From Brucella pseudogrignonensis (GTDB taxonomy: Bacteria; Pseudomonadota; Alphaproteobacteria; Rhizobiales; Rhizobiaceae), in NCBI RefSeq assembly GCF_032190615.1, contig NZ_JAVLAT010000001.1, positions 2,259,105-2,323,104 on the forward strand: a stretch of DNA of 64,000 bases. The letters are read 5' to 3'. Of the stretch, positions 42,411-61,716 are shown in pieces. The position numbers and the translations under genes were made by a program. Position 1 is the first letter of the stretch; each line of letters starts with the position of its first letter. The notes beneath the pieces are model-generated. The model made no database searches. It was not told where the DNA came from and was given only the letters and a program-made list of their open reading frames with translations.

Positions 42411-43655
42411 TCAGATACCGCCTGAATAGATTGAGTCCGCTGCCGCAGCAAGCTCTTTTCCGTCATCATCACGCGGGAAAAGATGCCCGTATGTGTCCAT
42501 TGTCATCGCAATTGTTGAATGCCCCATACGCTCCTGAACGAGCTTTGGAGGCAATTCCAAACCGCCGTCAGCCTTCCGATTTATGCACCAAGATGCGTAC
42601 CAATGTCGCAGGCAGTGCATGCCGGTGTATTTAGCTTCAAAGACTGACTCGCCATTCTCGTCTTTATCGCCACTATCGATGGAGACGCCAGCAGCTATCC
42701 AAGCTGGATGAAGGCCACGCCGGAGAATGTTCCGAAGTCCTTCAACATTGCCTGCCCCATTCGGAAACACCAATTCAAGAACCGTTACGGGATTTCCGTC
42801 AGCATCCTTTTTGCCGGTATCGCGGCGAGGGCAGGCGAGCTTCCATTCCTTCAGTGTATTAATGACCAGAGGCGGAACAGGTATAGTCCGCTCACCTGAA
42901 ATTGATTTAGGCTTGCCAATGTCATCGTAGCGATCCGCACGTTGATGAACGCGCAAAGTCTTTTTCTCAAAGTCTACATCTTCCCAGCGCAAACCACGAA
43001 GCTCGGAGGCGCGAAGCCCGGTAAAGATTGCCGTCATGATCAATGGTCGCCAGCGTCCCGAAATCGAACCAAGAAGCGCGGTTATCTCTTCACGTGCAGG
43101 AATATCAATACCGACCTTTAAACGGCCTTTCTGACGCTTCTCTGAGCGGCTTGCGCCTTTGCCTCGTTTGGCCTGCATCTCTCTTGCTGCATTGCGCACC
43201 ACAAGACCACGCTCCTGTGCATCTGCCAGCATCGTTCCAAGAGTCGTGAGTGTCCGCTTGATCATAAAAGCCGACCTGTCCGCGTTGCGCAACTCGTCCT
43301 CGTAGGCCCGTAAGCGAACCGTGTTGAGTGCTGTCAGCTTCGCAGAGCCAAGGAAGGGCGCGATGTGCAGGCGCAGTGTCCGCTCGTAATCCTCGACCGA
43401 TGATCGTTCAAGATCAGAGCGTTTCACCGCAGCTATCCAGAGCTTGCCAGCCTCATAGACAGTTACTGTTGCACTGTCAGCGACATGCGTACCTTCGCGC
43501 ACTTCGACCTTTGCCGTGGCTTCAAAATCAACGGCCTCTTTTTTGCGGTCAAACGTCTTGAGGCGGCGCTTGCCATGCAGATCGACATAATCAACCACCC
43601 ATGCCGATTTCTGTTCGCCCTTCGGCGTTGTCCATTCTCGTTTGCGTATAGACAT
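42411..43655 (-). CDS. Phage tyrosine integrase
   Basis: The 414-residue recombinase contains the full catalytic set: R215 in AIFTGLRASELRGLRW, H347/R350 in GMHCLRHWYAS, H379 in RMGHST and nucleophile Y389 in TMDTYGHLF. The N-terminal part (about residues 1-60) is an arm-binding domain, and a SAM-like core-binding domain spans about 60-160. It is transcribed toward the tRNA-Thr fragment 54 bases away and should catalyse integration into that gene. Its start overlaps the stop of the Arc-like gene (TGATG), so the two form an operon. Confidence 0.95.
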   Translation of the reverse strand: MSIRKREWTTPKGEQKSAWVVDYVDLHGKRRLKTFDRKKEAVDFEATAKVEVREGTHVADSATVTVYEAGKLWIAAVKRSDLERSSVEDYERTLRLHIAPFLGSAKLTALNTVRLRAYEDELRNADRSAFMIKRTLTTLGTMLADAQERGLVVRNAAREMQAKRGKGASRSEKRQKGRLKVGIDIPAREEITALLGSISGRWRPLIMTAIFTGLRASELRGLRWEDVDFEKKTLRVHQRADRYDDIGKPKSISGERTIPVPPLVINTLKEWKLACPRRDTGKKDADGNPVTVLELVFPNGAGNVEGLRNILRRGLHPAWIAAGVSIDSGDKDENGESVFEAKYTGMHCLRHWYASWCINRKADGGLELPPKLVQERMGHSTIAMTMDTYGHLFPRDDDGKELAAAADSIYSGGI

Positions 43656-47987: not shown

Positions 47988-48476
47988 ATGGACGATGTGC
48001 GTTTAGCCGAACTCGCGAATACATACCCGCAGGCATGGCAGTGCTTTGCGAACCACGGTATCCGTGTTGTGGTGCCGAACGCAGTGCCTGGAATTGGTGA
48101 GACACGTGCAATCGGTACGCTCGACCGGCTAATCAGAAAGTACGGCGAACAGCATGCTGATTTTGTGGTTATGACTTTGGCGGAAAGCCACAATAACCGG
48201 AACTTCATTGATGAAACTACGCTCTGGGCTGTCAGTGACATGGTGCGCACGGCAAAGCGCAATTATCCCGGCGTAATGGAGAATGATTTAGAGGCTTGGT
48301 TCACTTTTTGGGATGGTACTCCGCTGGGTGTTCTAGCCGACTGGTGCCACGGCTTGGATGGACTGGTTTCTAAGCGACCCGCGCTCGTAGGTATGCTATT
48401 TGAAAGAATGCTCCGGCATTTTGGCGAAATGAGCCAACAGCCTGATTTGCTTGACGATAGAGGGATTACAGTATGA
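47988..48476 (+). CDS. Phage hypothetical protein
   Basis: No known family is recognised in these 162 residues. The sequence is acidic and contains GETRAIGTLDRLIRKYGEQH and TLAESHNNRNFIDETTLWA. It resembles hypothetical proteins from rhizobial prophages located near replication genes, but no function follows. It starts five bases after RNase H and overlaps the next gene by four bases, indicating co-translation. Confidence 0.62.
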   Translation: MDDVRLAELANTYPQAWQCFANHGIRVVVPNAVPGIGETRAIGTLDRLIRKYGEQHADFVVMTLAESHNNRNFIDETTLWAVSDMVRTAKRNYPGVMENDLEAWFTFWDGTPLGVLADWCHGLDGLVSKRPALVGMLFERMLRHFGEMSQQPDLLDDRGITV

Positions 48477-49285
48477 ACGAACAGGAAGTGCGAGCCCTTT
48501 TTATTCATGCCGCTTTTGTCGATAACCGGTTGCCCGAGACAGGACGGCCAGCACGTTTGAAGGCTCAGGCTTTGCCGTATTTCCATACTCAACAGGAAAA
48601 GGCGGGCTGGATACCGGCAGACTATGTGAATGGTGAGCCTATCCCGGGCAAGACTGCTCAGGAACGCAGGCGGCTCAAACGTCTGGCTAATGATAAGCTG
48701 GAGTTTAACGACCGTGGAAGGCTTGGAGAAGAAGCTGATCGGTTCTGGTCTGGTCGATCGACGCGCCTGCAAGCGGAAGATCTTTCAATCTGGGAAAAGG
48801 CAAATGACCTTATCAGGCTCGTCACTCGTGAGCGGAACCGGCGCTGTCTTTGGGCTTACGCAATGTCTCAGGCCAAAGCTTTGAAAGTATCCTCGGTCAA
48901 TGCTTCTGGCGAGTTGCGTTGGCTGCGAATGTCGTTCTCCAAGTGGTGCGCAACGGTGGAAGGTGTGCATCGGAACTACGGAAAAGTTTGTGCAGACACG
49001 GCAATTGTTGAAATTTCAGGCAAACTTGCCAGCAATGGCGCGCAGCCTAACGAAAAGGCACGAAACTGCACCTTGCGACTTACCCCGGAAATCGGTGATA
49101 TTCGGGATAAGATGGAGGCCAGCGCGTCAAGAGATTACAACACGTTCACAACTGATGGATGGGCTGTAAAAGACCGCAAGGTGGCGCTTCAAAGGTTTGA
49201 TGAAAAGCTGATCTACGTTGATATGTCGGACTTGAGAAACCGGCGCAGACGAAAGCAGTATTTGGATAAGGCGAAGGCAGCATAG
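48473..49285 (+). CDS. Phage hypothetical protein, possible DNA-binding
   Basis: This 270-residue basic protein has no certain family. An HTH-like stretch is visible at WLRMSFSKWCATVEGVHRNYGKV (about residues 149-171), and the C-terminus is strongly basic (LRNRRRRKQYLDKAKAA). The position at the end of the early operon and this motif suggest a regulator, such as an antiterminator or late-gene activator, but this is inference. It overlaps the previous gene by four bases, and a small membrane frame overlaps its stop. Confidence 0.6.
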   Translation: MNEQEVRALFIHAAFVDNRLPETGRPARLKAQALPYFHTQQEKAGWIPADYVNGEPIPGKTAQERRRLKRLANDKLEFNDRGRLGEEADRFWSGRSTRLQAEDLSIWEKANDLIRLVTRERNRRCLWAYAMSQAKALKVSSVNASGELRWLRMSFSKWCATVEGVHRNYGKVCADTAIVEISGKLASNGAQPNEKARNCTLRLTPEIGDIRDKMEASASRDYNTFTTDGWAVKDRKVALQRFDEKLIYVDMSDLRNRRRRKQYLDKAKAA

Positions 49286-49449
49286 TGGGTTTTCAGCTTT
49301 TTCTGGCAGCATTTACCATCATTCTTAGCGCTCCCTTCGTTTATGTCGGCGCAAAAATAAGAATGCCGACCTTATACAAGTTCGCCTATTTCGCCATTAT
49401 TGTGCTTATTGCAGGTGTGACGATTATCAAAGGTCGGCATGTTGGATGA
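49285..49449 (+). CDS. 54-residue small membrane protein (tentative)
   Basis: GTG 49285 overlaps the previous stop (TAGTG) and the frame runs 54 codons. It encodes two hydrophobic segments (FQLFLAAFTIILSAPFVYVG and FAYFAIIVLIAGVTII) separated by a basic turn. The length and hairpin topology resemble small phage membrane proteins, such as holin-like ones, but it lies in the early part of the phage. The start codon is weak and there is no homology evidence. Confidence 0.45.
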   Translation: MGFQLFLAAFTIILSAPFVYVGAKIRMPTLYKFAYFAIIVLIAGVTIIKGRHVG

Positions 49450-49513
49450 AGGCAATGCCGGAAGATTGCCCCGTATCTTCAAATGACAGGAATGTCTAAG
49501 GGATTAACTCAAC

Positions 49514-50026
49514 CTATCCCGCAGCCTCTGGGTCGTTTGGCTTACTTTCATTTGCAGTTTTGGACGGTGTTTTGATGTCGTCTTTCCCATGAGAAAATAG
49601 CGCAAGCGTTATCAATGCGAATACCATGATGATGATTGCTACGTCGAAGGCGTTAAGTGCGCAGGCTATTCCGATGGCACCAGTGGCCCAAAGGCTCGCA
49701 GCCGTAGCCGTTCCTTTAACGGACGAACTCAGGCGTAGAATAGCGCCACCACCAATAAAGCCCATGCCAGTGATGACGCCTTCGATAATACGGGCCAGCG
49801 CTTCTGGGTTATCTGCCGTCAACCCCTCTGTGGCTTTAACGAAACCGCAGCTAGCAACAGCAACTAGAGGAAAAGTTCTTAGGCCTGCGCTTCGTTCTTC
49901 GACCTCGCGGTGCCAACCGATAGGCAGAGCTAATATATAGGCTGCTGCCATGGTAATGATGTGCGGCCAAACATTGAAATTGTCAGCACTTAAAGCTTGA
50001 TGAAGTGCTGATTGAAACTGCTCCAT
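49514..50026 (-). CDS. MgtC/SapB family membrane protein (prophage cargo)
   Basis: MgtC proteins are inner-membrane proteins needed for growth in low magnesium and inside macrophages, including in Brucella suis. This 170-residue member has the family core ALPIGWHREVEERSAGLRTF, then GVITGMGFIGGGAIL and VKGTATAASLWATGAIG, with four or five membrane helices and a short polar tail; the ACT-like C-terminal domain of Salmonella MgtC is absent. GGGAGCGG precedes ATG 50026. It is transcribed against the surrounding phage genes, as expected for an independently expressed moron. It is followed rightward by two more envelope genes. Confidence 0.9.
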   Translation of the reverse strand: MEQFQSALHQALSADNFNVWPHIITMAAAYILALPIGWHREVEERSAGLRTFPLVAVASCGFVKATEGLTADNPEALARIIEGVITGMGFIGGGAILRLSSSVKGTATAASLWATGAIGIACALNAFDVAIIIMVFALITLALFSHGKDDIKTPSKTANESKPNDPEAAG

Positions 50027-50200
50027 TGTACCGCTCCCACTATTGACGCAGCGATAACGTAGTCAGTTCATTTCAGTTCCAAGCAGAACGGACTGCGCAA
50101 TGTCTGACGACCGGCGGGTTTGCAAGTCTATCTGTCAAACCCGCTGCTTAAGCGGATGGGAAAAAATACGAGCGGCTTTCGGGCTAACTCCCATTTGTCA

Positions 50201-50377
50201 TTAATGTGGAAGTATCGCATTAATTTGGGTAACCATATCATTTAGCTGGATGCGTAGTTCAGCATCTTCTTCTGCTCGTTCATGGTCGGATAGTCCAGAA
50301 CGGGCATGGAGCTTAGCCTTAATCTCTTCGATCTTGGCTTTGATGTGTTCAATTTCATCTTTGACGATATGCGACAT
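50201..50377 (-). CDS. 58-residue coiled-coil protein (tentative)
   Basis: This small minus-strand frame encodes a highly charged, helical protein with heptad-like repeats in DEIEHIKAKIEEIKAKLHAR. No known family is recognised. It lies between mgtC and the Omp31-like gene. The start lacks a strong ribosome site, but composition and continuous amphipathic pattern support coding. The remaining DNA between 50027 and 50200, and from 50378 to 50580, has no other gene I can see. Confidence 0.45.
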   Translation of the reverse strand: MSHIVKDEIEHIKAKIEEIKAKLHARSGLSDHERAEEDAELRIQLNDMVTQINAILPH

Positions 50378-50580
50378 TGTGTTTGCCTACATTAGAGTGG
50401 AGATGCTTAGACGCTAGTAGCTTTCGCTTCGCCTTTTGTTTAATATTTTTTAATCATAATAAAGCGCTACTCGGCTAAAATTCCCTATTAGATTGGGTGT
50501 GGCTTATTTACTACAGACTTTTGAGCAAGATGCCATATCTTAATCTCTAGAGTTTTTCTAAAGGGCTTGGAGAGATTAAA

Positions 50581-51306
50581 ATGAAAATTAAAGCGATCTT
50601 GTTTGCTTCGGCAGCTATTTTTGCAGGCATCTCGGTAGCTAATGCAGCTGACGCCATTGTATACGAAGAACCAGCACCGGTTGTTTCTGCACCTGTGTTT
50701 TCTTGGACTGGCGGTTATCTCGGCGGTCAAGTGGGTTGGGGTTGGGCGAAGTCCACCTTTGATCTAAACGGTTACAATATTGGCCACATGAAACCAGACG
50801 GTTTCCTCGGCGGTCTTTACGCAGGTTATAACTTCGACCTCGGCAACAATGTGGTTCTGGGTCTCGATGGTGACGTAACCTTCAATAATCAGAAAGACAA
50901 TATTTCTGAGACCTTTACTGATGGCGTAGATAGCCTGACCCTCGGCGCTGAAAGCAAGCTGCGTACTTCTGGTGCGGTTCGCGCACGCGTAGGTTATGCA
51001 TTTGACCGTTGGCTCCCATACGTTGCCGCAGGTGTTGCGATTGGCAGCGTTAAGAATACCGTCTCAGCTTCTGGTAACATTGACGGTCAAGCTTTTGATG
51101 TTTCTGAGTCCAAAAGCAAAACACACGTTGGTTGGACTGCTGGCGCTGGCGTAGATTACGCTGCAACAGATAACGTCATTCTGCGTCTCGAATACCGTTA
51201 CAGCGACTACGGTAAGAAGAACTACTCGGTAGTAGACGACGTGCTCACAGCTCGTAACAAGTTCAAGACCAACGAAGTTCGTCTCGGCGTTGCCTACAAG
51301 TTCTAA
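50581..51306 (+). CDS. Omp25/Omp31 family outer-membrane beta-barrel protein (prophage cargo)
   Basis: This 241-residue protein has a clear signal peptide (cleavage likely after SVANA, residue 22). A mature eight-strand barrel follows, with FSWTGGYLGGQVGWGWAKS at the N-terminus and the Omp31-like repeat regions. The last residues form the terminal strand ending in phenylalanine (VRLGVAYKF). It matches the Brucella Omp25/Omp31 family, abundant outer-membrane proteins that affect virulence and host interaction. A GGAG site lies before ATG. It is inside the prophage, between the early and packaging genes, with its own terminator, so it is likely a lysogenic-conversion gene. Confidence 0.93.
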   Translation: MKIKAILFASAAIFAGISVANAADAIVYEEPAPVVSAPVFSWTGGYLGGQVGWGWAKSTFDLNGYNIGHMKPDGFLGGLYAGYNFDLGNNVVLGLDGDVTFNNQKDNISETFTDGVDSLTLGAESKLRTSGAVRARVGYAFDRWLPYVAAGVAIGSVKNTVSASGNIDGQAFDVSESKSKTHVGWTAGAGVDYAATDNVILRLEYRYSDYGKKNYSVVDDVLTARNKFKTNEVRLGVAYKF

Positions 51307-51330
51307 TAACTGGTGACCTCCAGTTTAATT

Positions 51331-51358
51331 AAACCGCTCGGAGAAATCTGGGCGGTTT
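51331..51358 (+). terminator. Intrinsic terminator of the Omp31-like gene
   Basis: A 9-bp stem with one G-T pair (51331-51339 with 51350-51358) is followed by a T run. It lies 25 bases after the stop. Confidence 0.8.
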
Positions 51359-51422
51359 TTTATTGGAAATCGAACCTGATGCATAGCGGATGGGCAAGAA
51401 TTCGAGGCAACGCCTCAACGGA

Positions 51423-51552
51423 ATGCGAGGCGGCGGATTGCAGCCGATCCCGGCGAATAGCTGCAAGTGAGCGCTGGGATAGTTGGATAACTGGCAGGAG
51501 AAACCCCGTGTATACTGCTGCCCAGATGGGCCGACTACGGTGCGCCTCGCAT
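51423..51552. ncRNA. Candidate structured RNA element, about 130 nt
   Basis: A perfect 10-bp inverted repeat closes the region (51423-51432 with 51543-51552). Inside are a perfect 7-bp stem (51438-51444 with 51460-51466), a GGCAG/CTGCC stem with a loop containing GGAGAAACC, and further short helices, suggesting a multi-branched fold. The overlapping 82-residue frame has no protein-like features. Strand and function are unknown; a regulatory RNA or leader of the lipocalin gene is possible. The rest of the 317-base gap (51307-51623) holds only the terminator and a small GAGGC/GCCTC hairpin at 51404-51416. Confidence 0.4.
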
Positions 51553-51623
51553 ATAAACTAGTCAGACTTGAAACATGCCATTGGCGTCATATCTACGCTG
51601 CCAGAAACAAATGAGGTGGTGAG

Positions 51624-52157
51624 ATGAAGCTGAAGCATTTAAGCATTATAACAGCATTGGCTGGTCTGGCGATTTTGACCGCTTGTAAAACCACACGGCA
51701 CGATTTGGCGTTGGCTCCAGTGCATAATTTCGATGCAGATCGATATTTGGGTAAGTGGTATGAACTCGGTCGCATTGAAAACCGCTTTGAAAAAGGTATG
51801 AACCAGACAACCGCCCAGTACTCCCTAAACGAGGATGGGACTATAAAGGTTGTTAATGCGGGTTTCGATCCGGCCAAAGGCAAATTCAGAAGTTCTACCG
51901 GCAAGGCTAAGTTTGCTGAGGGAGCAGATGTTGGTGCTTTGAAAGTTTCTTTCTTTGGCCCGTTTTACGGCGCTTATAATATCGTGGCGCTTGACCGTAA
52001 TTATCAATGGTCGATTGTTGCTGGAGATAATCCGAATAAATATTTTTGGGTGCTCTCGCGTCAGCCCAAGCTAACAAATGCGCTGAAATCTGAGGCTTTA
52101 AAGGTTGCTAATACCCTCGGTGTTGATCCATCTACAATCATTTGGGTGAAGCAGTAA
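51624..52157 (+). CDS. Bacterial lipocalin (Blc-type) lipoprotein (prophage cargo)
   Basis: This 177-residue lipoprotein has a lipobox LTAC with the lipidated cysteine at residue 21, then the lipocalin fold. The first conserved block is DADRYLGKWYELGRIENRFE (the GxW motif), with a later DRNYQWSIVAGDNPNKYFW block typical of Blc/apolipoprotein D-like proteins. Blc binds lysophospholipids at the outer membrane and is stress-induced. GAGGTGG precedes the ATG. It lies downstream of the Omp31-like gene and is the third envelope gene of the cargo block. A role in membrane maintenance of the lysogen is inferred. Confidence 0.93.
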   Translation: MKLKHLSIITALAGLAILTACKTTRHDLALAPVHNFDADRYLGKWYELGRIENRFEKGMNQTTAQYSLNEDGTIKVVNAGFDPAKGKFRSSTGKAKFAEGADVGALKVSFFGPFYGAYNIVALDRNYQWSIVAGDNPNKYFWVLSRQPKLTNALKSEALKVANTLGVDPSTIIWVKQ

Positions 52158-52183
52158 TTTTCGATTTAACGAAGAGAAACAAG

Positions 52184-52214
52184 ACCCGCCACGCTTCGGC
52201 GCACCCCGGCGGGT
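52184..52214 (+). terminator. Probable terminator of the lipocalin gene
   Basis: A 7-bp GC-rich stem (52184-52190 with 52208-52214) with a 17-base loop lies 26 bases after the lipocalin stop; only a weak T-rich tail follows. Confidence 0.5.
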
Positions 52215-52216
52215 TA

Positions 52217-52441
52217 CTATTTATGGTTTGTGAAAGAGCTTGCAGCGCGTATGGCAGTTAATTCAACCTGACCGCCACTTTGTTCAAAAGCTCTGATTAC
52301 AAATCTGGCAAGCTTGTCTTTACCATCATGTGTGGTTGGACACTGCCCCAGAAGATCACAGCACCGGCTATATGCATTTTGCAGTGCTTTAAGATCATGT
52401 GGTGTGAATACGCCCCTATAAGCTGAACTTTTGAAAGGCAT
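52217..52441 (-). CDS. Small conserved protein of rhizobial genomes
   Basis: This 74-residue protein starts MPFKSSAYRGVFTPHDLKAL, with a helix, two adjacent cysteines (SRCCDLLGQC) and the sequence GKDKLARFVIRAFE. It resembles small hypothetical proteins widespread in Rhizobiales, whose role is unknown. The frame extends to 52492, but ATG 52441 has a strong GGGAGG site seven bases upstream. It is read toward the lipocalin gene. Confidence 0.7.
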   Translation of the reverse strand: MPFKSSAYRGVFTPHDLKALQNAYSRCCDLLGQCPTTHDGKDKLARFVIRAFEQSGGQVELTAIRAASSFTNHK

Positions 52442-52514
52442 CCCCGTTTCCTCCCTTCCGAATAAGAAACATCGGAAGGTGGTCAAATTCAACTGAAATC
52501 TTATTGTTATTCAG

Positions 52515-52531
52515 CCCCGCCTAGTGCGGGG
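52515..52531 (+). terminator. Intrinsic terminator hairpin
   Basis: A perfect 6-bp GC stem (52515-52520 with 52526-52531) with TTTTCTGTTT after it, reading rightward. It has no gene directly upstream on its strand other than the distant lipocalin gene. Confidence 0.6.
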
Positions 52532-52605
52532 TTTTCTGTTTGGGGAGAGTAATGGCAACTTGTGACCTGAAAATCTCCCTGAATGGAGATAGCCTGTCTG
52601 TGATG

Positions 52606-52824
52606 CTATCGACGCTTACCGAGGCCGCGAATAGATTTCCTGAATTTGGCGACAACCTTCTCCGCTTCCTTAATTCCGGCGAAGAGCTGTTCACTGTCGA
52701 TGACGACATCAGACCCACACCCGGCGCAGGTGAGCTTGTCGTGAGTTTTAAGCCAAGCGATGGTCTTCTCGGTCTTGTGTCCGCATTTAGGGCAAGTAAC
52801 CCCGATTTTCTGATCTTCAAACAT
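52606..52824 (-). CDS. Zinc-ribbon protein
   Basis: This 72-residue protein carries a CPKCGHKTEKTIAWLKTH segment followed by LTCAGCGSDVV, four cysteines in two CxxC pairs that should bind zinc, and a basic helical C-terminus. GGGAGG stands six bases before ATG 52824. Similar small zinc ribbons are common near packaging genes of rhizobial phages. A frame on the opposite strand covers the same DNA and also has a good ribosome site, but the cysteine pattern favours this strand. Confidence 0.75.
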   Translation of the reverse strand: MFEDQKIGVTCPKCGHKTEKTIAWLKTHDKLTCAGCGSDVVIDSEQLFAGIKEAEKVVAKFRKSIRGLGKRR

Positions 52825-53010
52825 GATGAGCCTCCCGCTGGCAATTCAGCACAGGCGCATTGAACTGTCTAGCCATTCTGGGAGCGGCACTCCTTTCACT
52901 CATCCCACCGGGCGATGAGGCAATAGCTACACTCGCGCAGAAGAAGCAACACTGGCTGCTCCGGGGCAATGCCTTGCATATCAACAGTGTGAAGTGGGCA
53001 AGCCCGGTAG

Positions 53011-53436
53011 TCACTTTTGCCAAACAAAAACTGTCGTGTTGAAGTTTGCTTTGCATTCTGGACAAGTGAGGTTGGAATAGCCGCCACCTCGATATTGTGT
53101 GAGACGGTAGAACCGACCGAAGTTTTGTTCACACCTTGGGCAAAAAGGTTCACCCTTAGGACTGCCATCGTCAAATGGTTCGTACTTGAAACCGTTGTAC
53201 TCAACTAGCTTACCGCGGAACTCGAACGCTGACTTGAGGCGCTTAGCCTCACTTTTCTCAGCTTCGATGACTTCGCTTGCTTCTATTAGGCCAATCTTAG
53301 CGTCCGCTAGCTGTGACATCACATCGGCCAGTTTCGCCTTGAGCTCTGCTTTGTCAAATTGCGCGTCAATTGAGCGAAGCTCATTCACGATTTTGAGTGC
53401 GCCTGTAACTGAGGCAATAGCTTCAACTATTGTCAT
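53011..53436 (-). CDS. Coiled-coil protein with C-terminal zinc ribbon
   Basis: This 141-residue protein has a helical N-terminal half with coiled-coil character (AELKAKLADVMSQLADAK, then EVIEAEKSEAKRLKSAFEF) and a C-terminal zinc ribbon of two pairs, FCPRCEQNFG and LTCPECKANF. ATG 53436 is preferred because GGAG stands seven bases upstream, although the frame reaches 53487. No specific family is recognised. With the previous zinc ribbon gene, it forms a minus-strand pair between the cargo block and the packaging operon. Confidence 0.7.
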   Translation of the reverse strand: MTIVEAIASVTGALKIVNELRSIDAQFDKAELKAKLADVMSQLADAKIGLIEASEVIEAEKSEAKRLKSAFEFRGKLVEYNGFKYEPFDDGSPKGEPFCPRCEQNFGRFYRLTQYRGGGYSNLTCPECKANFNTTVFVWQK

Positions 53437-53501
53437 GTGTTTCTCCGTCCAATACCCGACAGGAATAAACCGTGGCTTGCAAATCAAAGCAAGAGGGATA
53501 G

Positions 53502-53570
53502 ATGCCTAAGATCAAAACCCTCAAGCCTCTCGTGTCCACGATGAAGCCAAGGCTGGGACATGAAGGATAG
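53502..53570 (+). CDS. 22-residue frame; likely displaced N-terminus of the HNH protein
   Basis: This frame, with a strong GAGGG ribosome site, encodes MPKIKTLKPLVSTMKPRLGH and stops two codons later. Sequences of this kind are the N-terminal part of many phage HNH endonucleases. The HNH frame starts at 53560, inside this one, in the +1 frame. It is either an overlapping leader peptide or the cut-off start of the endonuclease. Confidence 0.5.
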   Translation: MPKIKTLKPLVSTMKPRLGHEG

Positions 53571-53991
53571 GCGAAGAGCGCACAGGCCAGACCGAGATAC
53601 AGCACAGCCCTATAGGCAATGGTACAAGACAGCGAGATGGCAGAAGCTACGTTGGTCCATCCTCGTCCGCGACCTATTCACCTGCCAGATGTGCGGCGTG
53701 ATCCTGAGAGAAGGAAGATCAGAAAAGGGCGCAAGCGGGTTAAGACCGGCAGTATGCGACCACCTGATACCACATAAGGGTGATGAAGCCCTGTTCTTCA
53801 GTGAGAGCAACCTATGGGCAGTATGTGACAGCTGCCATGATGGTCCATGCCAATCGATAGAACGAATGCACTATCGAAGCCCAGACACTATCAGGATCAA
53901 AAAGATCGAGCATCGCAATGTTGGGCAGGATGGATACCCAACAGCGCCTAAAGATCGATGGATAGATCGAAGCTTTCATATAGGCGCATAG
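53560..53991 (+). CDS. HNH endonuclease (packaging module)
   Basis: This 143-residue protein begins with the family lead-in QPYRQWYKTARWQKLRWSIL. It has the two zinc-binding CxxC pairs (CQMC and CDSC) around the HNH motif CDHLIPHKGD ... NLWAVCDSCHD. In HK97-type phages, an HNH protein next to the terminase genes stimulates DNA cleavage during packaging. It overlaps a 22-residue frame that may be its true start. Its own ATG has only an AAGG-like site. The 190 bases between it and the small terminase contain no other gene. Confidence 0.88.
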   Translation: MKDRRRAHRPDRDTAQPYRQWYKTARWQKLRWSILVRDLFTCQMCGVILREGRSEKGASGLRPAVCDHLIPHKGDEALFFSESNLWAVCDSCHDGPCQSIERMHYRSPDTIRIKKIEHRNVGQDGYPTAPKDRWIDRSFHIGA

Positions 53992-54183
53992 ACGAGCGTT
54001 TTGATTGAAGTGTTGCAATGCATCAAAAAAAGATCAAACGCCTCTCAGTGGCCCGATATGGGGCGGTCAGATAGGCCGGGGCGGGGTAAAAGTCTACAGC
54101 TGACCGTCAGCCAGACCCGCGTCCCAAGCATTTACACGCATCCGCAATTCATAAAAAGGGTTTAGGCCCGTGAAAGGGCTGAA

Positions 54184-54581
54184 ATGCCACGTCCGCAAAC
54201 GCCACTTGCTAAGGCGGCGCTAACTGGCGCTGACAAGAAAGACCCGCAACGTTATCGCGACAGAAGTAACCCGAAAGCTTCGGGGCGCGGTATCGAAAAG
54301 CCCCAGATTATCTGAGTAAGAATGCAAAAAAGGCATGGGCAATCTTTGTCGATGAAATCCCGTGGCTGGTCTACGAGGACCGAGCGGCACTAGAGATTGT
54401 CAGCATCATGAGGGGGCAGATTATCGAAGGCGCAAGCGATCTGCCTGCTTCATTCTTTGGCAATTACCGCATGGCCGTTTCATCACTAGGCGCAACGCCG
54501 GTTGATCGGTCCAAGGTTCACCAGCCACATGAAGAAGCTGATGATGATCCCTTTGCAGAATTTGACGGTAGGCAACATTGA
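54184..54581 (+). pseudogene. Terminase small subunit (P27 family), frameshifted
   Basis: The N-terminal part MPRPQTPLAKAALTGADKKD (frame from ATG 54184) is in one frame to residue 40, then hits TGA at 54313. The remaining family sequence, DYLSKNAKKAWAIFVDEIP, then LVYEDRAALEIVSIM and GATPVDRSKVH, continues in the next frame from 54306 to the stop at 54581. Adding one C to the CCCC at 54301-54304 restores a 132-residue P27-type small terminase. As it stands, packaging recognition of phage DNA should fail. A sequencing error in the C run cannot be excluded. The large terminase start overlaps its stop (TTGA). Confidence 0.85.
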
Positions 54582-56269
54582 GCTACGCAGATAAGGCGCA
54601 TCAATACGCCCGTGACGTTGTTTCAGGCGCTATTCCGGCCTGCAAGTATGTCTATCAGGCTTGCCAGCGACAGCTTGACGATCTGGCTAATCCGCCGAAG
54701 GGCTATCACTTCGATACCGGAAGGGCAGAGCGCATCTGCCGATTTGTCGAGCTATGCCCACATATCAAAGGCCCGTCAGCTTCACGCGGCGATCTGATGA
54801 TTTTGGAGCCGTGGCAGCTATTCATCTTGAGCACGTCATTCGGCTGGGTGGATAGTAACGGAAATAGGCGGTTTCGTCGCGTTTATGTGGAAGTCCCCCG
54901 CGGTAACGGGAAGTCATCTTTCTCGTCGCCGGTTGGTCTTTACATGCTTGCGCTTGACGGTGAAGCCGGTGCTGAAATCTACTCGGCAGCGACGACACGC
55001 GATCAGGCTCGCATTGTTTTCCGCGATGCACAGGCGATGGCAAGAAAGATGCCTGCCTATCGCAATCGGTTTAAGGTCGATGTCAGTGCACAGTCTCTTG
55101 TGCAGATGAAAACATCGAGCGCGTTCAAGGCTCTATCCGCTGACGGGCATACGCTTGACGGTTTGAATATTCATCTGGCTATCGTAGACGAGCTTCACGC
55201 GCACAAAAGCCGTGATGTTTATGATGTTCTGGAAACAGGGCTTGGCAAACGGCCTCAATCGATGCTGTGGATGATCACCACGGCAGGCAGCAACAAGCAC
55301 GGTATCTGCTACGAGGTCAGGAAGTTCGTTCTTGATGTTCTGGCTGGCACTGTAGCGGGGGAGGCTGCTGACGCTGTATTCGGAATTATTTACACCATTG
55401 ACGAGGGCGACGATCCGTTTGCAGAAGAAACTTTGCGGAAGGCAAACCCGAATTGGGGTGTGTCTGTCGATCCTAAGATTGTCTTACAGACGGCAGGCAA
55501 GGCCAGACAGGTTGCAACAGCAAGGGCGAATTATCTCACCAAGCATCTGAATGTTTGGGTTGACGCTAATTCGGCGCTGTTTGACACAGACTGGTGGCGC
55601 AAATGCGAGGACCGCGATCTTGTTGAGGAAGACTTTGCCAACGACGAATGTGTCATTGGCCTTGATCTGGCAAGTAAGATCGACATTGCAGCGCGTGTAA
55701 ACCTCTATCGCAGGTTGATAGATGGGAAGGCTCATTATTATGTTTTCCCACGTTTTTACCTACCGAGAGTTGCAATAGAAGAAGATAAGCACCCGATGTA
55801 TCGCGGGTGGGAGATGCAGGGCGACATAACTGCCACTGCCGGTGAGACAATCGACTTCGGTTCAATCGAGGATGACATCAAGGCGGAAGGTCCGGGATTA
55901 AATCTGCAAGCTGTAGCAACTGACCCATGGCAAGCGCAGCAGATGATCCAGAACCTCAAGCGCGATGGAATGCCTGCCGAGGAATATCGGCAAACAGTGG
56001 CAACGATGAGCGAGGCGACGAAAACGCTTGATGCTCTCATGCGGGAACAGCGCATTCATCACACCGGAAATGCGGTGATGAACTGGATGATCGGCAATGT
56101 TGTCGGGCATTACGATGCAAAAGAGAACGTCTACCCGCGCAAGGAGATGCCTCAAAACAAGATCGACGGTGCGGTGGCGCTAATCATGGCTCTTGGCTGG
56201 TTTATTCAGCAGGAAACGGAACATGATGGCATGGATGATTACTTCAAGAGCTTGGCAGGTGCAGCGTGA
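54578..56269 (+). CDS. Phage terminase large subunit
   Basis: The packaging motor ATPase/nuclease has 563 residues. The Walker A variant PRGNGKS is at about 107-113, Walker B IVDELHAHKS has D204 E205, and the C-terminal nuclease domain starts with CVIGLDLASKIDIAA (first catalytic aspartate). The sequence is of the HK97/Terminase_1 group. The start is TTG 54578, overlapping the small subunit stop; no ATG fits better. It ends four bases into the portal gene (GTGA overlap). Confidence 0.95.
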   Translation: MSYADKAHQYARDVVSGAIPACKYVYQACQRQLDDLANPPKGYHFDTGRAERICRFVELCPHIKGPSASRGDLMILEPWQLFILSTSFGWVDSNGNRRFRRVYVEVPRGNGKSSFSSPVGLYMLALDGEAGAEIYSAATTRDQARIVFRDAQAMARKMPAYRNRFKVDVSAQSLVQMKTSSAFKALSADGHTLDGLNIHLAIVDELHAHKSRDVYDVLETGLGKRPQSMLWMITTAGSNKHGICYEVRKFVLDVLAGTVAGEAADAVFGIIYTIDEGDDPFAEETLRKANPNWGVSVDPKIVLQTAGKARQVATARANYLTKHLNVWVDANSALFDTDWWRKCEDRDLVEEDFANDECVIGLDLASKIDIAARVNLYRRLIDGKAHYYVFPRFYLPRVAIEEDKHPMYRGWEMQGDITATAGETIDFGSIEDDIKAEGPGLNLQAVATDPWQAQQMIQNLKRDGMPAEEYRQTVATMSEATKTLDALMREQRIHHTGNAVMNWMIGNVVGHYDAKENVYPRKEMPQNKIDGAVALIMALGWFIQQETEHDGMDDYFKSLAGAA

Positions 56270-57519
56270 ACCTATTGCGAAAGATGCTGAATGGTTTCGT
56301 TGGCGATACGCCTGTTAAGCGGAACCTGACCGTTCGTGAGCCTGACGCTTGGTATCCGGGTGACAGCATCGGCGGGGCCGGGGAGATCATCACTGAAAAG
56401 AATGTTCTTGCACTGTCTGCGGTGTGGGCATGTGTGAACCTGATTTCAGGTACAATCTCGTCGTTGCCGCTTATGGTTTATCGCAAGAGTGCTGACGGAT
56501 CACGCGAGGTCGCAAGCGATCACCCACTCTATGTTGTGCTGCACGACAGCCCGAATTACGACCAGACAGCGGTTGACTTCTGGGACTTCATGGCGGCATC
56601 GGTTGAGCTTTGGGGCAATGGTTACGCTCGTGTCAATCGATCAAATGGTAATGTTCGGGTCTTAACTCCTATTCTTCCGGCGCTGATGAGCGTTCAGAAG
56701 AAGTCCAACGGCGATCTGATTTACAAGTGGACTGAGGACGGCAAGGCGAACGAAGCCACAGATCGCGAAATCCTGCATATCCGTGGTTTCGGCGGCAACC
56801 CACTTGGCGGAGCGTCGACGCTTTACTTCGGTCGCCGTGTGTTTGGCTTATCGCAGGCAGCGGATAGATCAGCCGGATCGATGTTTGAGAACGGTTTGCG
56901 ACCTTCTGGTGTTCTCAAGTTCGAGAAGTGGCTGAACGATGAGCAGCGCGAGCTTGCCGAACAGAAACTTGCAGCGAAAATCGGAAGCGGCAATGCTGGC
57001 AAGCCTATCATCCTAGAGGGCGGCACCGAATGGCAGCAACTGACGATTACGCCAGAAGATGCCCAGATGCTGGAAACCCGCTCATTCTCTATTGAGGAAA
57101 TCTGTCGGTTCTTCGGTGTGCCTCCGCATATGGTTGGTCACACATCGAAATCGACAAGTTGGGGATCGGGTATTGAAGCGCAAACACTCGGCTTTCAGAA
57201 GTTCACACTTCGCCGTCGTTTGAAGCGCATTGAACAGGCACTGATGAAACAGCTCCTGACGCCAGCGGATAAGGCGGCAGGGGTTATCATAGAATTTAAC
57301 CAAGAAGGCCTTCTGCGGGGCGATACGGCGGGAAGAGCGCGGTTCTACCAGCAGATGACGGCAATCGGCGCGATGACGATCAACGAAGTCCGAGAGCTTG
57401 AGAACTTGCCACCTGTCGAGGGCGGAGATGTTCCACGCATGCAGATGCAGAATGTGCCCATTACCGAAGCCGGTGCAGACCGAGAACTGACCCCGCGTCA
57501 GAGCGACAACGAGGAATAA
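56266..57519 (+). CDS. HK97-type portal protein
   Basis: The 417-residue portal forms the dodecameric ring at one capsid vertex, through which DNA enters and to which the tail attaches. Family blocks: LSAVWACVNLISGTISSLPL near residue 47, VELWGNGYARVNR, EILHIRGFGG, and SIEEICRFFGVPPHMVGH. Start is GTG 56266 overlapping the terminase stop. The protein is complete and gives no sign of decay. Protease and capsid genes follow. Confidence 0.94.
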   Translation: MNLLRKMLNGFVGDTPVKRNLTVREPDAWYPGDSIGGAGEIITEKNVLALSAVWACVNLISGTISSLPLMVYRKSADGSREVASDHPLYVVLHDSPNYDQTAVDFWDFMAASVELWGNGYARVNRSNGNVRVLTPILPALMSVQKKSNGDLIYKWTEDGKANEATDREILHIRGFGGNPLGGASTLYFGRRVFGLSQAADRSAGSMFENGLRPSGVLKFEKWLNDEQRELAEQKLAAKIGSGNAGKPIILEGGTEWQQLTITPEDAQMLETRSFSIEEICRFFGVPPHMVGHTSKSTSWGSGIEAQTLGFQKFTLRRRLKRIEQALMKQLLTPADKAAGVIIEFNQEGLLRGDTAGRARFYQQMTAIGAMTINEVRELENLPPVEGGDVPRMQMQNVPITEAGADRELTPRQSDNEE

Positions 57520-57524
57520 TCTCG

Positions 57525-58187
57525 ATGAAAACCAAAGACTTTGCCTTGCAGGTTAAAGACCTGTCGGAAGACGGCACCTTTACGGGTTACGGCTCGGTCA
57601 ACGGCAATGTTGACAGCTATGGCGAGCGGGTAATGCCCGGTGCTTTCGCTGGCAGTCTCGCTAAGCATAAGCGCGAAGGCACAAGCGTTCTGATGCTTTG
57701 GCAGCATAACCCGAATGAACCGATCGGTATCTGGGATGATCTTGCTGAGGATGCAAAAGGCCTTTGGGGTAAGGGCCGCTTGATCATGGAAGTGCAGAAG
57801 GCTCGTGAAGTCCATGCGCTCATGAAGGCGAATGCTATCGGTGGTCTTTCCATCGGGTACCGAGAAATCAAAGCCACTCCTGACGGCAATGTGCGCAATC
57901 TGGATGAATTGGACCTGCGGGAAATCTCCCCGGTTTCTTTCCCAGCCAATCGCCGCGCCCGTATCGAGGCAGTGAAATCTGAACGCATGGATGAGTTTGC
58001 CAGACGCCTCCGCGATGGCGACCCCATGCCGATCAAAGAATTTGAGGACATCTTGCGAGAGGCAGGGGTTCCAAAAAGCATGGCATGCGCGATTGCCTCG
58101 CATGGTTATGCAAAGGCCGTTCTGGGTGATCCAGAGGGCGAAAAGGCAAGCGACGCAACCGCATTCTTAAAAGCATTGCGCGGTTAA
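57525..58187 (+). CDS. HK97-type prohead protease
   Basis: This 220-residue U35-type serine protease (herpes assemblin fold) trims the scaffold part of the capsid protein. The conserved histidine is in MLWQHNPNEPIG and the serine in IGGLSIGYRE. LREISPVSFPAN is also typical. The C-terminal 65 residues are variable. It starts five bases after the portal stop. Confidence 0.93.
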   Translation: MKTKDFALQVKDLSEDGTFTGYGSVNGNVDSYGERVMPGAFAGSLAKHKREGTSVLMLWQHNPNEPIGIWDDLAEDAKGLWGKGRLIMEVQKAREVHALMKANAIGGLSIGYREIKATPDGNVRNLDELDLREISPVSFPANRRARIEAVKSERMDEFARRLRDGDPMPIKEFEDILREAGVPKSMACAIASHGYAKAVLGDPEGEKASDATAFLKALRG

Positions 58188-58221
58188 ATCTCACCCTCTT
58201 TGTCCAGAAAGGACATTATCA

Positions 58222-59442
58222 ATGAGCGACAATAAAACAGCAGAGCAGCTTGCTCTGGAGGTTAAGGCTGACTTCGAGAAGAAGTTTGACAGCGTCAAGG
58301 AAATCGCTGAACAGGCCGTGGCTGAAGCCAAGAAGAATGGCGACATCAGCGAGAGCCTCAAGGCAAAGGCTGACGAAAGCCTTACCGCCATGAATGAACT
58401 CAAGGCACGTCTTGACGATTTCGAGCAGAAGGCAGCACGCGGCGGTGGCGAAGGCGACCGGGAAAAGTCGATTGGTGAGCAGTTCGTTGAAAACGACAAG
58501 GTCAAGGAATTTCTCGGTCAGGCGAACCCTCGCGGTCGCATCGACATTCAGACCAAGGCCACGCTGACCACGGCAACCACGAACGCCGCCGGTTCCGTTG
58601 GCGCTGCAATTCAGACCACCCGACTTCCCGGCATTCTTGAGCTGCCCCAGCGCCGTCTGACTATCCGTGATCTGCTCTCGCAGGGTCAGATGGACGGCGG
58701 TTCACTGGAATACGTCAAGGAAAAGGGTTTCAACAACCGCGCCGCTGGCGTGGCTGAAGGTGCGGCAAAGCCAAACTCGGATATTCAGTTCGAGCTGGTA
58801 ACGACCTCTGCCAAGGTCATTGCACACTGGATGAAGGCTTCCCGTCAGGTGCTGTCTGACGTGTCACAGCTTCGCTCGATCATTGATCAGCGCTTGCTGT
58901 ACGGTCTGGCATACGTTGAAGAAAACCAGCTTCTCAACGGTGACGGCACAGGCCAGAACCTGCTCGGCATCATCCCGCAGTCGACAGCGTTCGCTATCCC
59001 TGCCGGGACAACCATGCCAGCAACTGTTACCGGCATTGATCGTCTTCGTGTGGCGATGCTTCAGGCGGCGCTTGCTGAATATCCAGCAACCGGCCATGTC
59101 CTCAATCCGATTGATTGGACGTCGATTGAACTGCTCAAGGACACTCAGGGCCGTTACATCATCGGCAATCCGCAGGGTACGCTTTCGCCTACTCTTTGGG
59201 GCCTTCCTGTTGTCACCACTCAGGCGGTTGCGGCTGGTAAGTTCCTCACCGGTGCGTTCAAGCTTGGTGCGCAGATTTTCGACCGCTGGCAGGCACGTGT
59301 TGAAGTCGCAACTGAGAATGAAGACGACTTCATCAAGAACCTTGTCACCATCCTTGCTGAAGAACGTCTCGCTCTGGCTGTCTATCGTCCAGAAGCGTTC
59401 ATCTACGGCGATGTGAACGCGGCTCCGGGTGGCGGCGAATAA
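58222..59442 (+). CDS. HK97-type major capsid protein
   Basis: The 406-residue shell protein has an N-terminal delta domain (about residues 1-105) that is a coiled coil with many charged residues and ends in a loop. The protease should cut near SIGEQFVENDKV. The HK97 fold follows, with GSLEYVKEKGFNNRA and KVIAHWMKASRQVLSDVSQL, then VEENQLLNGDGTGQNLLGI. The C-terminus has VVTTQAVAAGKFLTGAFK, a normal end block. A ribosome site precedes ATG, and the gene is intact. Confidence 0.95.
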   Translation: MSDNKTAEQLALEVKADFEKKFDSVKEIAEQAVAEAKKNGDISESLKAKADESLTAMNELKARLDDFEQKAARGGGEGDREKSIGEQFVENDKVKEFLGQANPRGRIDIQTKATLTTATTNAAGSVGAAIQTTRLPGILELPQRRLTIRDLLSQGQMDGGSLEYVKEKGFNNRAAGVAEGAAKPNSDIQFELVTTSAKVIAHWMKASRQVLSDVSQLRSIIDQRLLYGLAYVEENQLLNGDGTGQNLLGIIPQSTAFAIPAGTTMPATVTGIDRLRVAMLQAALAEYPATGHVLNPIDWTSIELLKDTQGRYIIGNPQGTLSPTLWGLPVVTTQAVAAGKFLTGAFKLGAQIFDRWQARVEVATENEDDFIKNLVTILAEERLALAVYRPEAFIYGDVNAAPGGGE

Positions 59443-59502
59443 GTTCTGATCAAATCGACGGGCAGTTAACGCTGCCCGTTTCTTGATCTGAAGGAGATTG
59501 CC

Positions 59503-59685
59503 ATGAAAACCTATGAAGTTTTACGCCGTCATCAGGGTGATAAATTCTATGAACCCGGCGATGAACGACAGGCATCCGAAACTGATGTGTCGCATTTGGT
59601 GAAGAATGGCGTTTTGAAGGAAAAGTCCGAGGAAAAGCCGAAGAATAAGGCTGAAGGTCGGGCAGAAAAGAACAAAGGCGGTTGA
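59503..59685 (+). CDS. Small phage head-region protein
   Basis: The 60-residue product resembles small proteins between capsid and connector genes in rhizobial phages: KFYEPGDERQASETDVSHLVKNGVL, with a lysine- and glutamate-rich tail. Its role is unknown; it may be a minor head component. AAGGAG lies before ATG. Confidence 0.75.
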   Translation: MKTYEVLRRHQGDKFYEPGDERQASETDVSHLVKNGVLKEKSEEKPKNKAEGRAEKNKGG

Positions 59686-59688
59686 TAA

Positions 59689-60255
59689 ATGCTGCTTCCT
59701 GTCCGCACACAAGCGCCAGCAGACCTACCGGTATCGCTTGAAGAAGCTCGTCAACATCTGATTGTGTCGGGTTTCACCGATGATGATAACCAGATCACGC
59801 GCTTTATTCAGGCCGCGACCGATCATCTTGAGCGTACGCTTAACATCGCGCTTGTCACTCAGACGTGGAAGCAATCGTTTTGCTCGTTTAATAGCTTCCT
59901 GCGGCTGCGTATGGGGCCAGTGGCTAGCGTTGAGGCCGTGAAGTACTTCGACACCGATAATGTGGAGAAAACCGTTTCAGAGGCCTCCTACAAGACGCTG
60001 GACTATGCCTGCGGAACAGTTCTTTCGCTCGCTTACGGTAACTCGTGGCCCGCTACTGTAGCCCGCGCCGATGCGGTCACTATCGAATACAAGGCAGGGA
60101 CAGCCCCGGCAGACGTGCCAGCCTCTCTCAAGGCGGCAATCCTGATGCATGTTGGGCTGATGTACTCATACCGAGGCGACCCAGAAGGCCCACGGATTGA
60201 GAGCAATCAAGCCTATGAAGCTCTTATCTGGCCGTTTCGCCGTCCGAAGGTGTAA
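59689..60255 (+). CDS. Head-tail connector protein (gp6-like)
   Basis: This 188-residue protein belongs to the HK97 gp6-like adaptor family. Its N-terminal pattern PVSLEEARQHLIVSGFTDDD (about residues 15-34) and helix ITRFIQAATDHLERTL are typical. The C-terminal part has LKAAILMHVGLMYSYRGDPE. The ring it forms joins the portal to the tail. The position between capsid and head-closure genes supports this. Confidence 0.88.
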   Translation: MLLPVRTQAPADLPVSLEEARQHLIVSGFTDDDNQITRFIQAATDHLERTLNIALVTQTWKQSFCSFNSFLRLRMGPVASVEAVKYFDTDNVEKTVSEASYKTLDYACGTVLSLAYGNSWPATVARADAVTIEYKAGTAPADVPASLKAAILMHVGLMYSYRGDPEGPRIESNQAYEALIWPFRRPKV

Positions 60256-60257
60256 TC

Positions 60258-60599
60258 ATGGCTAGATTAGGATCAGGGCAACTTCGTTCATCTATCACCT
60301 TCAGCACCATCACCGAAGTGCCGGACGGGCATGGTGGTTTCGAGCCGACCCCGACCGATTTCACAGTCCGCGGCAATATCCGGTATCTGCGGGGAGGGGA
60401 AACGGTTCAGGCGGCAAGGTTGACGGGTAAGCAGCCGGTTGTTGTCACGGTGCGCAGAAGTAGCCAGACGGCAGCTTTGACCACTGATGACGGTATGCGT
60501 GATGCGCGCACCGGAACCGAGTACCAGATCAGGGCAATTGTCCCGACCGAGGATCGGCAGTTTATGGAAATTACAGCGGAAAGCGGGGTGGCGACATGA
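60258..60599 (+). CDS. Head closure / head-tail adaptor protein
   Basis: The 113-residue product matches the SPP1 gp16-like head-closure family: GQLRSSITFSTITEVPDGHG, then GETVQAARLTGKQPVVVTVR and the closing block TGTEYQIRAIVPTEDRQFME. It is beta-rich and should plug the connector after packaging. It begins two bases after the connector gene and overlaps the next start by four bases. Confidence 0.87.
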   Translation: MARLGSGQLRSSITFSTITEVPDGHGGFEPTPTDFTVRGNIRYLRGGETVQAARLTGKQPVVVTVRRSSQTAALTTDDGMRDARTGTEYQIRAIVPTEDRQFMEITAESGVAT

Positions 60600-61439: not shown

Positions 61440-61639
61440 TGGCTTGGGCAATCTTTAAAGTGGAATGCAACTGGTCGCGTCCTCGCAGCCGGTATTCGTT
61501 CAACGCCAAGGCTTCGCCGGAACCGCAAGAACGTCCGCAAGACTTCATTGATTACTGCGTATCGAAAGGCTGGGCCGAAGCGGTCGCAAGCCCGACACGC
61601 GATCAGAAACGCGCCCTGAAAGGCCGTAAACGGGCTTAG
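61439..61639 (+). CDS. 66-residue phage protein
   Basis: ATG 61439 overlaps the last base of the gp10-like stop (TAATG). The protein is basic with aromatic residues (AWAIFKVECNWSRPRSRYSF) and a helical middle. Similar small proteins occur between gp10 and tail tube genes in related phages; the role is unknown. Confidence 0.6.
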   Translation: MAWAIFKVECNWSRPRSRYSFNAKASPEPQERPQDFIDYCVSKGWAEAVASPTRDQKRALKGRKRA

Positions 61640-61716
61640 CCCAATCACCTGAAACCGGGCCTCAAGCCCTATCAAGGCTGGCGTATTGCTGGCCCGTTTT
61701 CGCATGGAGAAATAAC

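What the first reader, a model, noticed from the sequence alone, without database searches (positions are those of the whole stretch)
49514..52157. Envelope cargo block in the prophage: MgtC, Omp31-like protein and Blc lipocalin
Three unrelated envelope proteins lie between the phage early region and packaging genes. mgtC is on the opposite strand and the Omp31-like gene has its own terminator, as expected for genes expressed in the lysogen. MgtC and Omp25/31 proteins affect host-cell survival in Brucella, and Blc handles membrane lipids. This suggests lysogenic conversion of the cell surface and a possible route by which Omp31-type genes move between Brucellaceae.
Basis: partly seen in the sequence, partly recalled or inferred. 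Interest (0 to 1): 0.8.

Follow-up and report, generated by a model that had tools for sequence, protein, structure and literature searches.

The report
Swappable stress-and-envelope cargo in prophages
A virus resident in the chromosome of a Brucella-group bacterium carries a small removable block of bacterial cell-surface genes; one of them looks set to be switched on by the bacterium's own stress alarm, and other resident viruses carry genes of the same kinds in a corresponding slot.

Summary
Observation confirmed: mgtC (-), an outer-membrane barrel gene (+) and a Blc-like lipocalin gene (+) lie between early and packaging genes of a tyrosine-integrase prophage. They form a cargo block. A second prophage in the same genome shares 99.9% of the late module from 52178 on but lacks the cargo: homologues of the two left-flank genes abut the right-flank gene. 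A decayed island holds the same block, with a different omp. In other prophages these genes are alternative occupants of one slot, with HWE kinases, DUF892, LprI and defence-type genes. New: a perfect EcfG general-stress promoter motif starts 54 nt before mgtC. It recurs in 21 of 24 distinct upstream regions of this mgtC type (shuffles: mean 0.07) and before most phage-slot DUF892 genes, never before omp (0 of 58). So mgtC is probably expressed in the lysogen through the host's stress sigma factor. The virulence reading is weaker: this MgtC lacks the C-terminal domain of the host's longer MgtC. No function was tested.

The parts
42411..43655 (-). tyrosine integrase of the prophage (left end)
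   Evidence: phrog_1 integrase 199 bits; XerC/XerD-type NCBIfam hits below cut-off
48473..49285 (+). last early gene, left flank of the cargo block (phrog_37864 family)
   Evidence: homologue (30%) abuts the right flank in the cargo-free second-chromosome prophage
49286..52177 (.). cargo block present here, absent from the second-chromosome prophage; similarity to the second-chromosome island starts at 49274 and stops at 52170
49285..49449 (+). 54-aa ORF with membrane-like sequence, function unknown
   Evidence: no NCBIfam or PHROG hit
49514..50026 (-). mgtC, short type (170 aa, PF02308 only)
   Evidence: relatives in prophages
50056..50080 (-). EcfG-type (general stress sigma factor) promoter motif GGAAC-N16-CGTT, first base 54 nt upstream of the mgtC start codon
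50201..50377 (-). 58-aa ORF conserved in the island copy (dN/dS 0.11), function unknown
   Evidence: no NCBIfam or PHROG hit
50581..51306 (+). outer-membrane beta-barrel (Omp25/31 type; label recalled), 241 aa, signal-like N-terminus and C-terminal Phe by inspection
   Evidence: OMP_b-brl; own-genome paralogues; tree
51331..51358 (+). terminator-like hairpin after omp, conserved in the island and with two phage-borne omps
51399..51550 (+). element with a 26-nt core shared by other phage-type loci, in some just after an omp
51624..52157 (+). Blc-like lipocalin, lipobox-like LTAC at residues 18-21 by inspection
   Evidence: phrog_2809
52185..52214 (+). hairpin at the right border of the block; sub-threshold hit to Rfam abiF RNA; also at the border in the cargo-free prophage
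53560..53991 (+). gene before the terminase genes, called HNH here by eye; homologues stand at the same place in other phages
   Evidence: no Pfam hit; homologues
54578..56269 (+). terminase large subunit

Best explanation
The block is a moron cassette in a variable cargo slot of prophages of the Brucella group. Shown from sequence: it is present in one prophage and absent from a sister prophage of the same genome, it recurs in a decayed island, and the same gene families occupy the corresponding slot of other prophages. Inferred: mgtC is transcribed in the lysogen from a host-type EcfG (PhyR-NepR-EcfG general stress response) promoter, independently of the phage programme, while omp and blc use other promoters and omp ends at its own terminator. 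The products would add an inner-membrane MgtC-type protein, an outer-membrane barrel and a lipid-binding lipoprotein, which most likely help the lysogen under envelope or nutrient stress and so help the prophage persist. Confidence by step: cargo block about 0.9; EcfG control of mgtC about 0.8; envelope/stress benefit about 0.4.
For: Cargo-free site in the same genome: late module 99.92% identical over 11,562 bp from 52178; homologues of the two left-flank genes (45% and 30%) directly before the 98.9% right-flank gene. Same borders in the island comparison. Slot survey by primase-helicase, not by cargo: 65 closed slots of 159-5410 bp among 73 viral contigs; HWE kinase 17, Omp 11, LprI 9, DUF892 7, MgtC 6, p60 4, FmdA 3, Blc 2; 33 held none of the panel. 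Motif: 21 of 24 distinct upstream regions of the short mgtC type, 200 dinucleotide shuffles mean 0.07, maximum 2; all 9 motif bases invariant in those 21 (they were picked by the motif) while their spacers average 38% pairwise identity. In closed slots mgtC 6 of 6 and DUF892 7 of 7 have it, none elsewhere in 140,878 bp; the six mgtC slots and four of the DUF892 slots are contigs already used. The motif equals the R. etli EcfG1 motif GGAAC-N16-CGTT (PMC3892343, passages). The host has ecfG-, nepR-, phyR- and HWE-kinase-type genes side by side with one strict motif in that locus, and two of its three chromosomal DUF892 genes have the motif upstream.
Against: No transcript or phenotype data. Strict motifs are not enriched genome-wide (70, against 141 for the pattern read backwards), so a single match means little; the conserved position is the evidence. 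Three of 24 mgtC upstream regions lack it, among them the 91% relative in B. gallinifaecis (L137). omp 0 of 58 and blc 1 of 26 have it, so the stress link covers only part of the block. None of the five BA14K genes has a strict motif close upstream on its strand, although a passage of PMC12354254 names ba14K among the top EcfG targets of B. abortus; no strict motif lies directly before nepR. The late module recurs at several contig ends, so assembly near 52.2 kb could be affected by the repeat.
Confidence: 0.72

Rival explanations
1. The slot is mainly an anti-phage hotspot, and omp and blc act in superinfection exclusion by altering phage receptors or outer-membrane lipids, rather than in stress fitness.
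For: The same slot holds matches to AriAB (L311), PDC-S39 (L301), PDC-S49 (L293) and PDC-S20 (L318) defence models, and RhuM and a Schlafen-AAA protein in other contigs. Phage hotspots of antiviral systems are described in PMC9122126 (passages). The omps of the two copies differ mostly in several stretches that could be loops.
Against: MgtC, DUF892, HWE kinase and formamidase are not known exclusion proteins (recalled). Signalling, stress and envelope genes outnumber defence-model hits in the 65 slots, but the panel was built from cargo seen earlier and only 10 other slot proteins were scanned with PADLOC, of which 4 hit. dN/dS of omp is 0.085 overall.
Confidence: 0.3
2. Virulence cargo: the block raises survival in host cells.
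For: Family-level resemblance to MgtC and, by recalled label, to Omp25/31 proteins.
Against: Short MgtC without the C-terminal domain. The type is patchy in the genus (13 of 35 genomes at 65% identity or more). None of the 80 loci kept of 247 bears the name of a classical agent, but such genomes may not have been among those searched. No data.
Confidence: 0.1
3. Accidental hitch-hiking: a chromosomal mgtC-omp-blc cluster was picked up by imprecise excision and is neutral.
For: mgtC genes with the motif also lie where no phage-panel genes were found; omp-blc pairs occur outside recognised prophages (L166, L171).
Against: Recurrent presence in the same slot of different phages and purifying selection on all four ORFs tested.
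Confidence: 0.1
4. Assembly artefact: the cargo-free sister prophage or the join at 52.2 kb is a mis-assembly of a repeat.
For: Contigs C1, C2 and C5-C7 hold this repeat, most of them at an end.
Against: Independent loci show omp followed by the same right-flank sequence (L109) and, in the island, blc followed by the 52509-52851 sequence. The two left halves are different unique sequence.
Confidence: 0.06

Closest known systems
P2/P4-type phage hotspots of antiviral systems (PMC9122126, passages read)
   Same: Small variable locus of about 1-5 kb between two conserved phage genes, with high turnover; a match to the AriAB model (the PARIS genes, equivalence recalled) occurs here too.
   Different: Other phages and host class; here the commonest cargo of my panel is signalling, stress and envelope genes, two families of which carry a host general-stress promoter motif.
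Lipocalins of temperate phages: lambda-like coliphage records and phrog_2809; S. meliloti phiLM21-like prophages (PMC12429752, section 10 read in full)
   Same: Lipocalin carried by a temperate phage.
   Different: Under 60% identity in all 19 phage records matched; here it stands with an omp and mgtC.
MgtC/SapB family
   Same: PF02308 domain.
   Different: Short form without PF21770; about 32-38% to the longer MgtC proteins of the genus.
Omp25/31-type outer membrane proteins of the Brucella group (label recalled)
   Same: Full-length paralogues in this genome, mostly 45-75%, and in 35 of 35 genus genomes.
   Different: Phage-borne; groups with the Omp of phage contig L109 and with L166. No named reference was compared.
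Alphaproteobacterial EcfG general stress response regulon
   Same: Same motif and spacing as R. etli EcfG1; host has the locus.
   Different: The target gene is prophage cargo. Searches 'general stress response'+prophage+EcfG (3 papers, judged by listing) and MgtC+EcfG (none) showed no paper on this.

Membership tests
Moron / prophage cargo block | extra DNA between phage genes, absent at the same place in a close relative | tested here: met
   cargo-free second-chromosome prophage
Moron / prophage cargo block | own promoter and terminator, expressed in the lysogen | tested here: inconclusive
   EcfG motif before mgtC, hairpins after omp and at the right border; no promoter found for omp or blc; no transcripts
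P2/P4-like variable hotspot | variable contents between two conserved genes across related phages | tested here: met
   65 closed slots, 159-5410 bp, many gene families, for the primase-helicase phages; for the window's phage type only the sister prophage and L392-L394, which show no panel cargo
EcfG regulon member (mgtC) | GGAAC-N16/17-CGTT at a promoter distance, conserved across relatives | tested here: met
   21 of 24; shuffles mean 0.07
EcfG regulon member (mgtC) | loss of expression without EcfG | not testable with these tools
   needs a wet test
Long MgtC (virulence-type) protein | membrane domain PF02308 plus C-terminal MgtC_SapB_C domain PF21770 | tested here: not met
   PF02308 only, 170 aa; the genome's own 238-aa MgtC has both
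Bacterial lipocalin | lipocalin family homology and lipoprotein signal | tested here: met
   Lipocalin_2 126 bits, PDB 3mbt E 1e-46; LTAC lipobox by inspection
Blc subfamily as curated in NCBIfam PRK10477 | score above the model's cut-off | tested here: not met
   196 bits against cut-off 267; hence 'Blc-like'
Omp25/31 family | full-length homology to named members | tested here: inconclusive
   full-length paralogues in the genome and genus, but no hit bears the name; label recalled
Omp31 proper | closest to the named Omp31 rather than Omp25 paralogues | not tested
   no named reference sequence was used

The most novel reading that the evidence does not exclude
Prophages of the Brucella group run part of their cargo on the host's general stress response: they keep EcfG-promoted genes (mgtC, DUF892) together with HWE-family kinases, outer-membrane barrels and lipocalins in one exchangeable slot, so that the lysogen's stress and envelope state is tuned by which prophage it holds, possibly with the phage kinase feeding the same PhyR pathway.
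Probability: 0.35. Interest if true: 0.82.

Novelty: new variant of a known kind. Interest (0 to 1): 0.6.

Why it matters
Cargo hotspots of temperate phages are best known as stores of defence or toxin genes. Here a slot shared by many prophages is loaded with envelope, signalling and stress genes, and two cargo families carry a promoter motif for the host's stress sigma factor. If confirmed, it gives a simple rule for when such cargo is expressed in alphaproteobacterial lysogens (stress, not induction). It also makes testable whether prophages are a main carrier of Omp25/31-type surface genes in a group that includes important pathogens.

Tried and rejected
DNA search of the block in phage records: no match. 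Megablast of the 22-kb prophage region found only a 375-bp stretch of the capsid gene of Agrobacterium phage Rivra at 73%. The viral-contig scan with Blc gave 28 pattern matches but no relative, so lipocalin-bearing slots were found only through other queries. No PDB relative by sequence for the Omp or MgtC at E 0.01.

Rejected: simple duplication of the whole block inside the genome. MgtC and Blc of the island are 93% and 91% like the window's, but its Omp (75%) groups with the Omps of phages L110/L111 (100/92 support). Rejected: stress control of the whole block, since omp and blc lack the motif. Rejected: orthology of the block's MgtC to the genus's long MgtC. The MgtC tree is poorly resolved (7 of 38 inner branches starred), so the direction chromosome-to-phage is not claimed. 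The Omp tree's bootstrap had not quite settled (0.989); of 58 distinct Omp-type ORFs 53 entered it (short, under-38% and cut copies dropped). An earlier count said 22 of 25 mgtC upstream regions; the counted value is 21 of 24.

No structure prediction was run. Papers: PMC5492332, PMC4729917, PMC11076708, PMC3892343, PMC6599016, PMC4438053, PMC12354254 and PMC9122126 were seen as passages found by search terms; PMC12429752 as passages and section 10 in full; all others as search listings only. The statement that the stress-linked cargo is not in print rests alone.
Full report
What is there. The three genes lie at the stated coordinates and belong to the named kinds of family: MgtC, outer-membrane barrel, lipocalin. 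The surroundings are a tyrosine-integrase prophage: integrase 42411-43655, early genes to 49285, then the block, then a gene called HNH here by eye, large terminase, portal, protease, capsid, connectors and tape measure up to the end of the window. The window ends exactly at the end of contig C1, so the right end of the prophage is not seen.

The block is cargo, shown by a comparison inside the same genome. The second chromosome-sized contig (C2) holds another prophage whose late module matches the window at 99.92% over 11,562 bp from 52178 to 63738. Upstream it differs: homologues of the window's last two early genes (45% and 30% identity) are followed by the gene that in the window stands to the right of blc (98.9%), with about 0.1 kb and the border hairpin between. 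The window prophage has about 2.8 kb more at this place. Three viral contigs with 89-90% identical portal proteins (L392-L394) also show the left-flank homologues without any cargo of my panel. Caution: contigs C1, C2, C5, C6 and C7 all hold this late repeat, most of them at an end, so read-level confirmation is wanted.

The block has travelled. A second copy lies on C2 at 778826-781351, in a region with a tRNA-Pro and ORFs that by eye resemble an integrase C-terminus and transposase pieces and with one gene like my phage panel. The nucleotide similarity starts at 49274 and ends at 52170 of the window, close to the borders given by the sister prophage, with a further matching stretch at 52509-52851. 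Protein identities are MgtC 93%, Omp 75%, Blc-like 91%; dN/dS is 0.096, 0.085 and 0.057, and 0.111 for the small ORF 50201-50377. The island's Omp groups with the Omps of phages L110/L111 at 100/92 support, the window's Omp with phage contig L109 and with L166 at 100/100, so block members have been exchanged one by one.

The same gene families fill one slot in other prophages. Viral contigs found through MgtC (9 loci) or Omp (6 loci) had a terminase large subunit in 6 of 9 and 5 of 6. In the same 11 loci the cargo lies after a Prim-Pol/AAA_25 primase-helicase, and further down lies a conserved gene here called p4. Three genus genomes have MgtC and two have the Blc-like gene in such a slot (L180, L181, L182; L173, L178). 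To avoid choosing by cargo I fetched 73 viral contigs by the primase-helicase alone: 65 slots were closed at both ends, 159 to 5410 bp long. Panel cargo in these 65: HWE kinase 17, Omp 11 (four of them only 41-43% alike), LprI 9, DUF892 7, MgtC 6, p60 4, formamidase 3, Blc-like 2; 33 slots held none of the panel. The panel was made from cargo seen earlier, and some contigs are the same or near-identical phages, so these are not independent events. Of 10 other slot proteins scanned with PADLOC, 4 matched defence models: AriAB (L311), PDC-S39, PDC-S49 and PDC-S20. RhuM, DUF4145, a Schlafen-AAA protein and an autotransporter also occur. The window's phage is of another kind (its early genes found no match in those loci) but draws on the same cargo pool.

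Stress wiring. A strict GGAAC-N16-CGTT motif starts 54 nt before mgtC in the window and in the island. It is the motif given for EcfG1 of Rhizobium etli (PMC3892343, passage). Of 100 distinct mgtC-type ORFs collected, 24 have a strict motif within 300 nt. Among the short type of the Brucella group (named Brucellaceae genomes, genus genomes without names, viral contigs and unnamed Rhizobiales genomes) 21 of 24 distinct upstream regions have it; misses are L137, L175 and L148, and one further copy, L116, had no upstream sequence and was not counted. 200 dinucleotide shuffles gave a mean of 0.07 and a maximum of 2. The other three of the 24 hits are L043, L095 and L164. In the 21 sequences the spacers average 38% pairwise identity and columns beside the motif 45-52% conservation. 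DUF892 genes, cargo and chromosomal, in the loci held: 9 of 14. Comparison sets: primase-helicase 0 of 13, p4 0 of 12, HWE 0 of 5, LprI 0 of 5, p60 0 of 5; omp 0 of 58, blc 1 of 26. In the 65 closed slots the motif stands before 6 of 6 mgtC and 7 of 7 DUF892 genes and nowhere else in 140,878 bp; the six mgtC contigs had been used. The host has EcfG-, NepR-, PhyR- and HWE-kinase-type genes together, with one strict motif in that locus but none directly before nepR. Two of its three DUF892 genes have the motif 86 and 162 nt before the matched start (coordinates). Against it: genome-wide the motif is not enriched (70, against 141 for the reversed pattern), and the five BA14K genes show none close upstream.

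Function. The phage HWE kinase has PAS_4 and HWE_HK domains, as has the chromosomal kinase beside phyR (26% identity), so a link to PhyR is conceivable but not shown. In Brucella ovis an HWE kinase, PhyK, influences the envelope, while earlier studies found no evidence that PhyK acts directly through EcfG (PMC12354254, passages). The window's MgtC lacks the C-terminal domain of the genome's long MgtC. What MgtC, Omp25/31 and Blc proteins do in general is recalled knowledge, not tested here. The most economical reading is a fitness cassette for the lysogen under stress, with superinfection exclusion by the surface proteins as the main rival.

Verdict. New here are the cargo-free sister prophage, the shared slot and the EcfG-type promoter motif on phage-borne mgtC and DUF892.

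Noticed in passing
window 51399-51550; L109, L215, L226, L392, L393, L394, L404: A 26-nt core (two letters allowed at eight positions) with a variable, structured-looking tail lies after omp; found in 8 of 315 loci of 4 kb or more. Possibly a small RNA or repeat element.
   Followed up: partly
window 52185-52214: Hairpin at the right border of the block is a sub-threshold hit to the Rfam abiF RNA family (29.7 bits, cut-off 37, E 0.02).
   Followed up: no
window about 63.7 kb: The tape-measure ORF stops early; six other places in the same genome with the same sequence have about 58 bp more here. It lies near a contig end and may be an assembly effect.
   Followed up: no
G000 C2:1308748-1310901 (L359): The genome has a further copy of the primase-helicase of the slot-bearing phage family at 96% identity.
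   Followed up: no
   Followed up: partly
L101, L104, L106, L113, L181 and others: Prophages carry a PAS-HWE histidine kinase in the cargo slot, 17 of 65 closed slots.
   Followed up: partly
window 50201-50377 (-): Small conserved 58-aa ORF under purifying selection, no NCBIfam or PHROG hit.
   Followed up: no
L311 11579-13147: Single ORF matching the AriAB defence model (411.7 bits) in the same phage slot.
   Followed up: no
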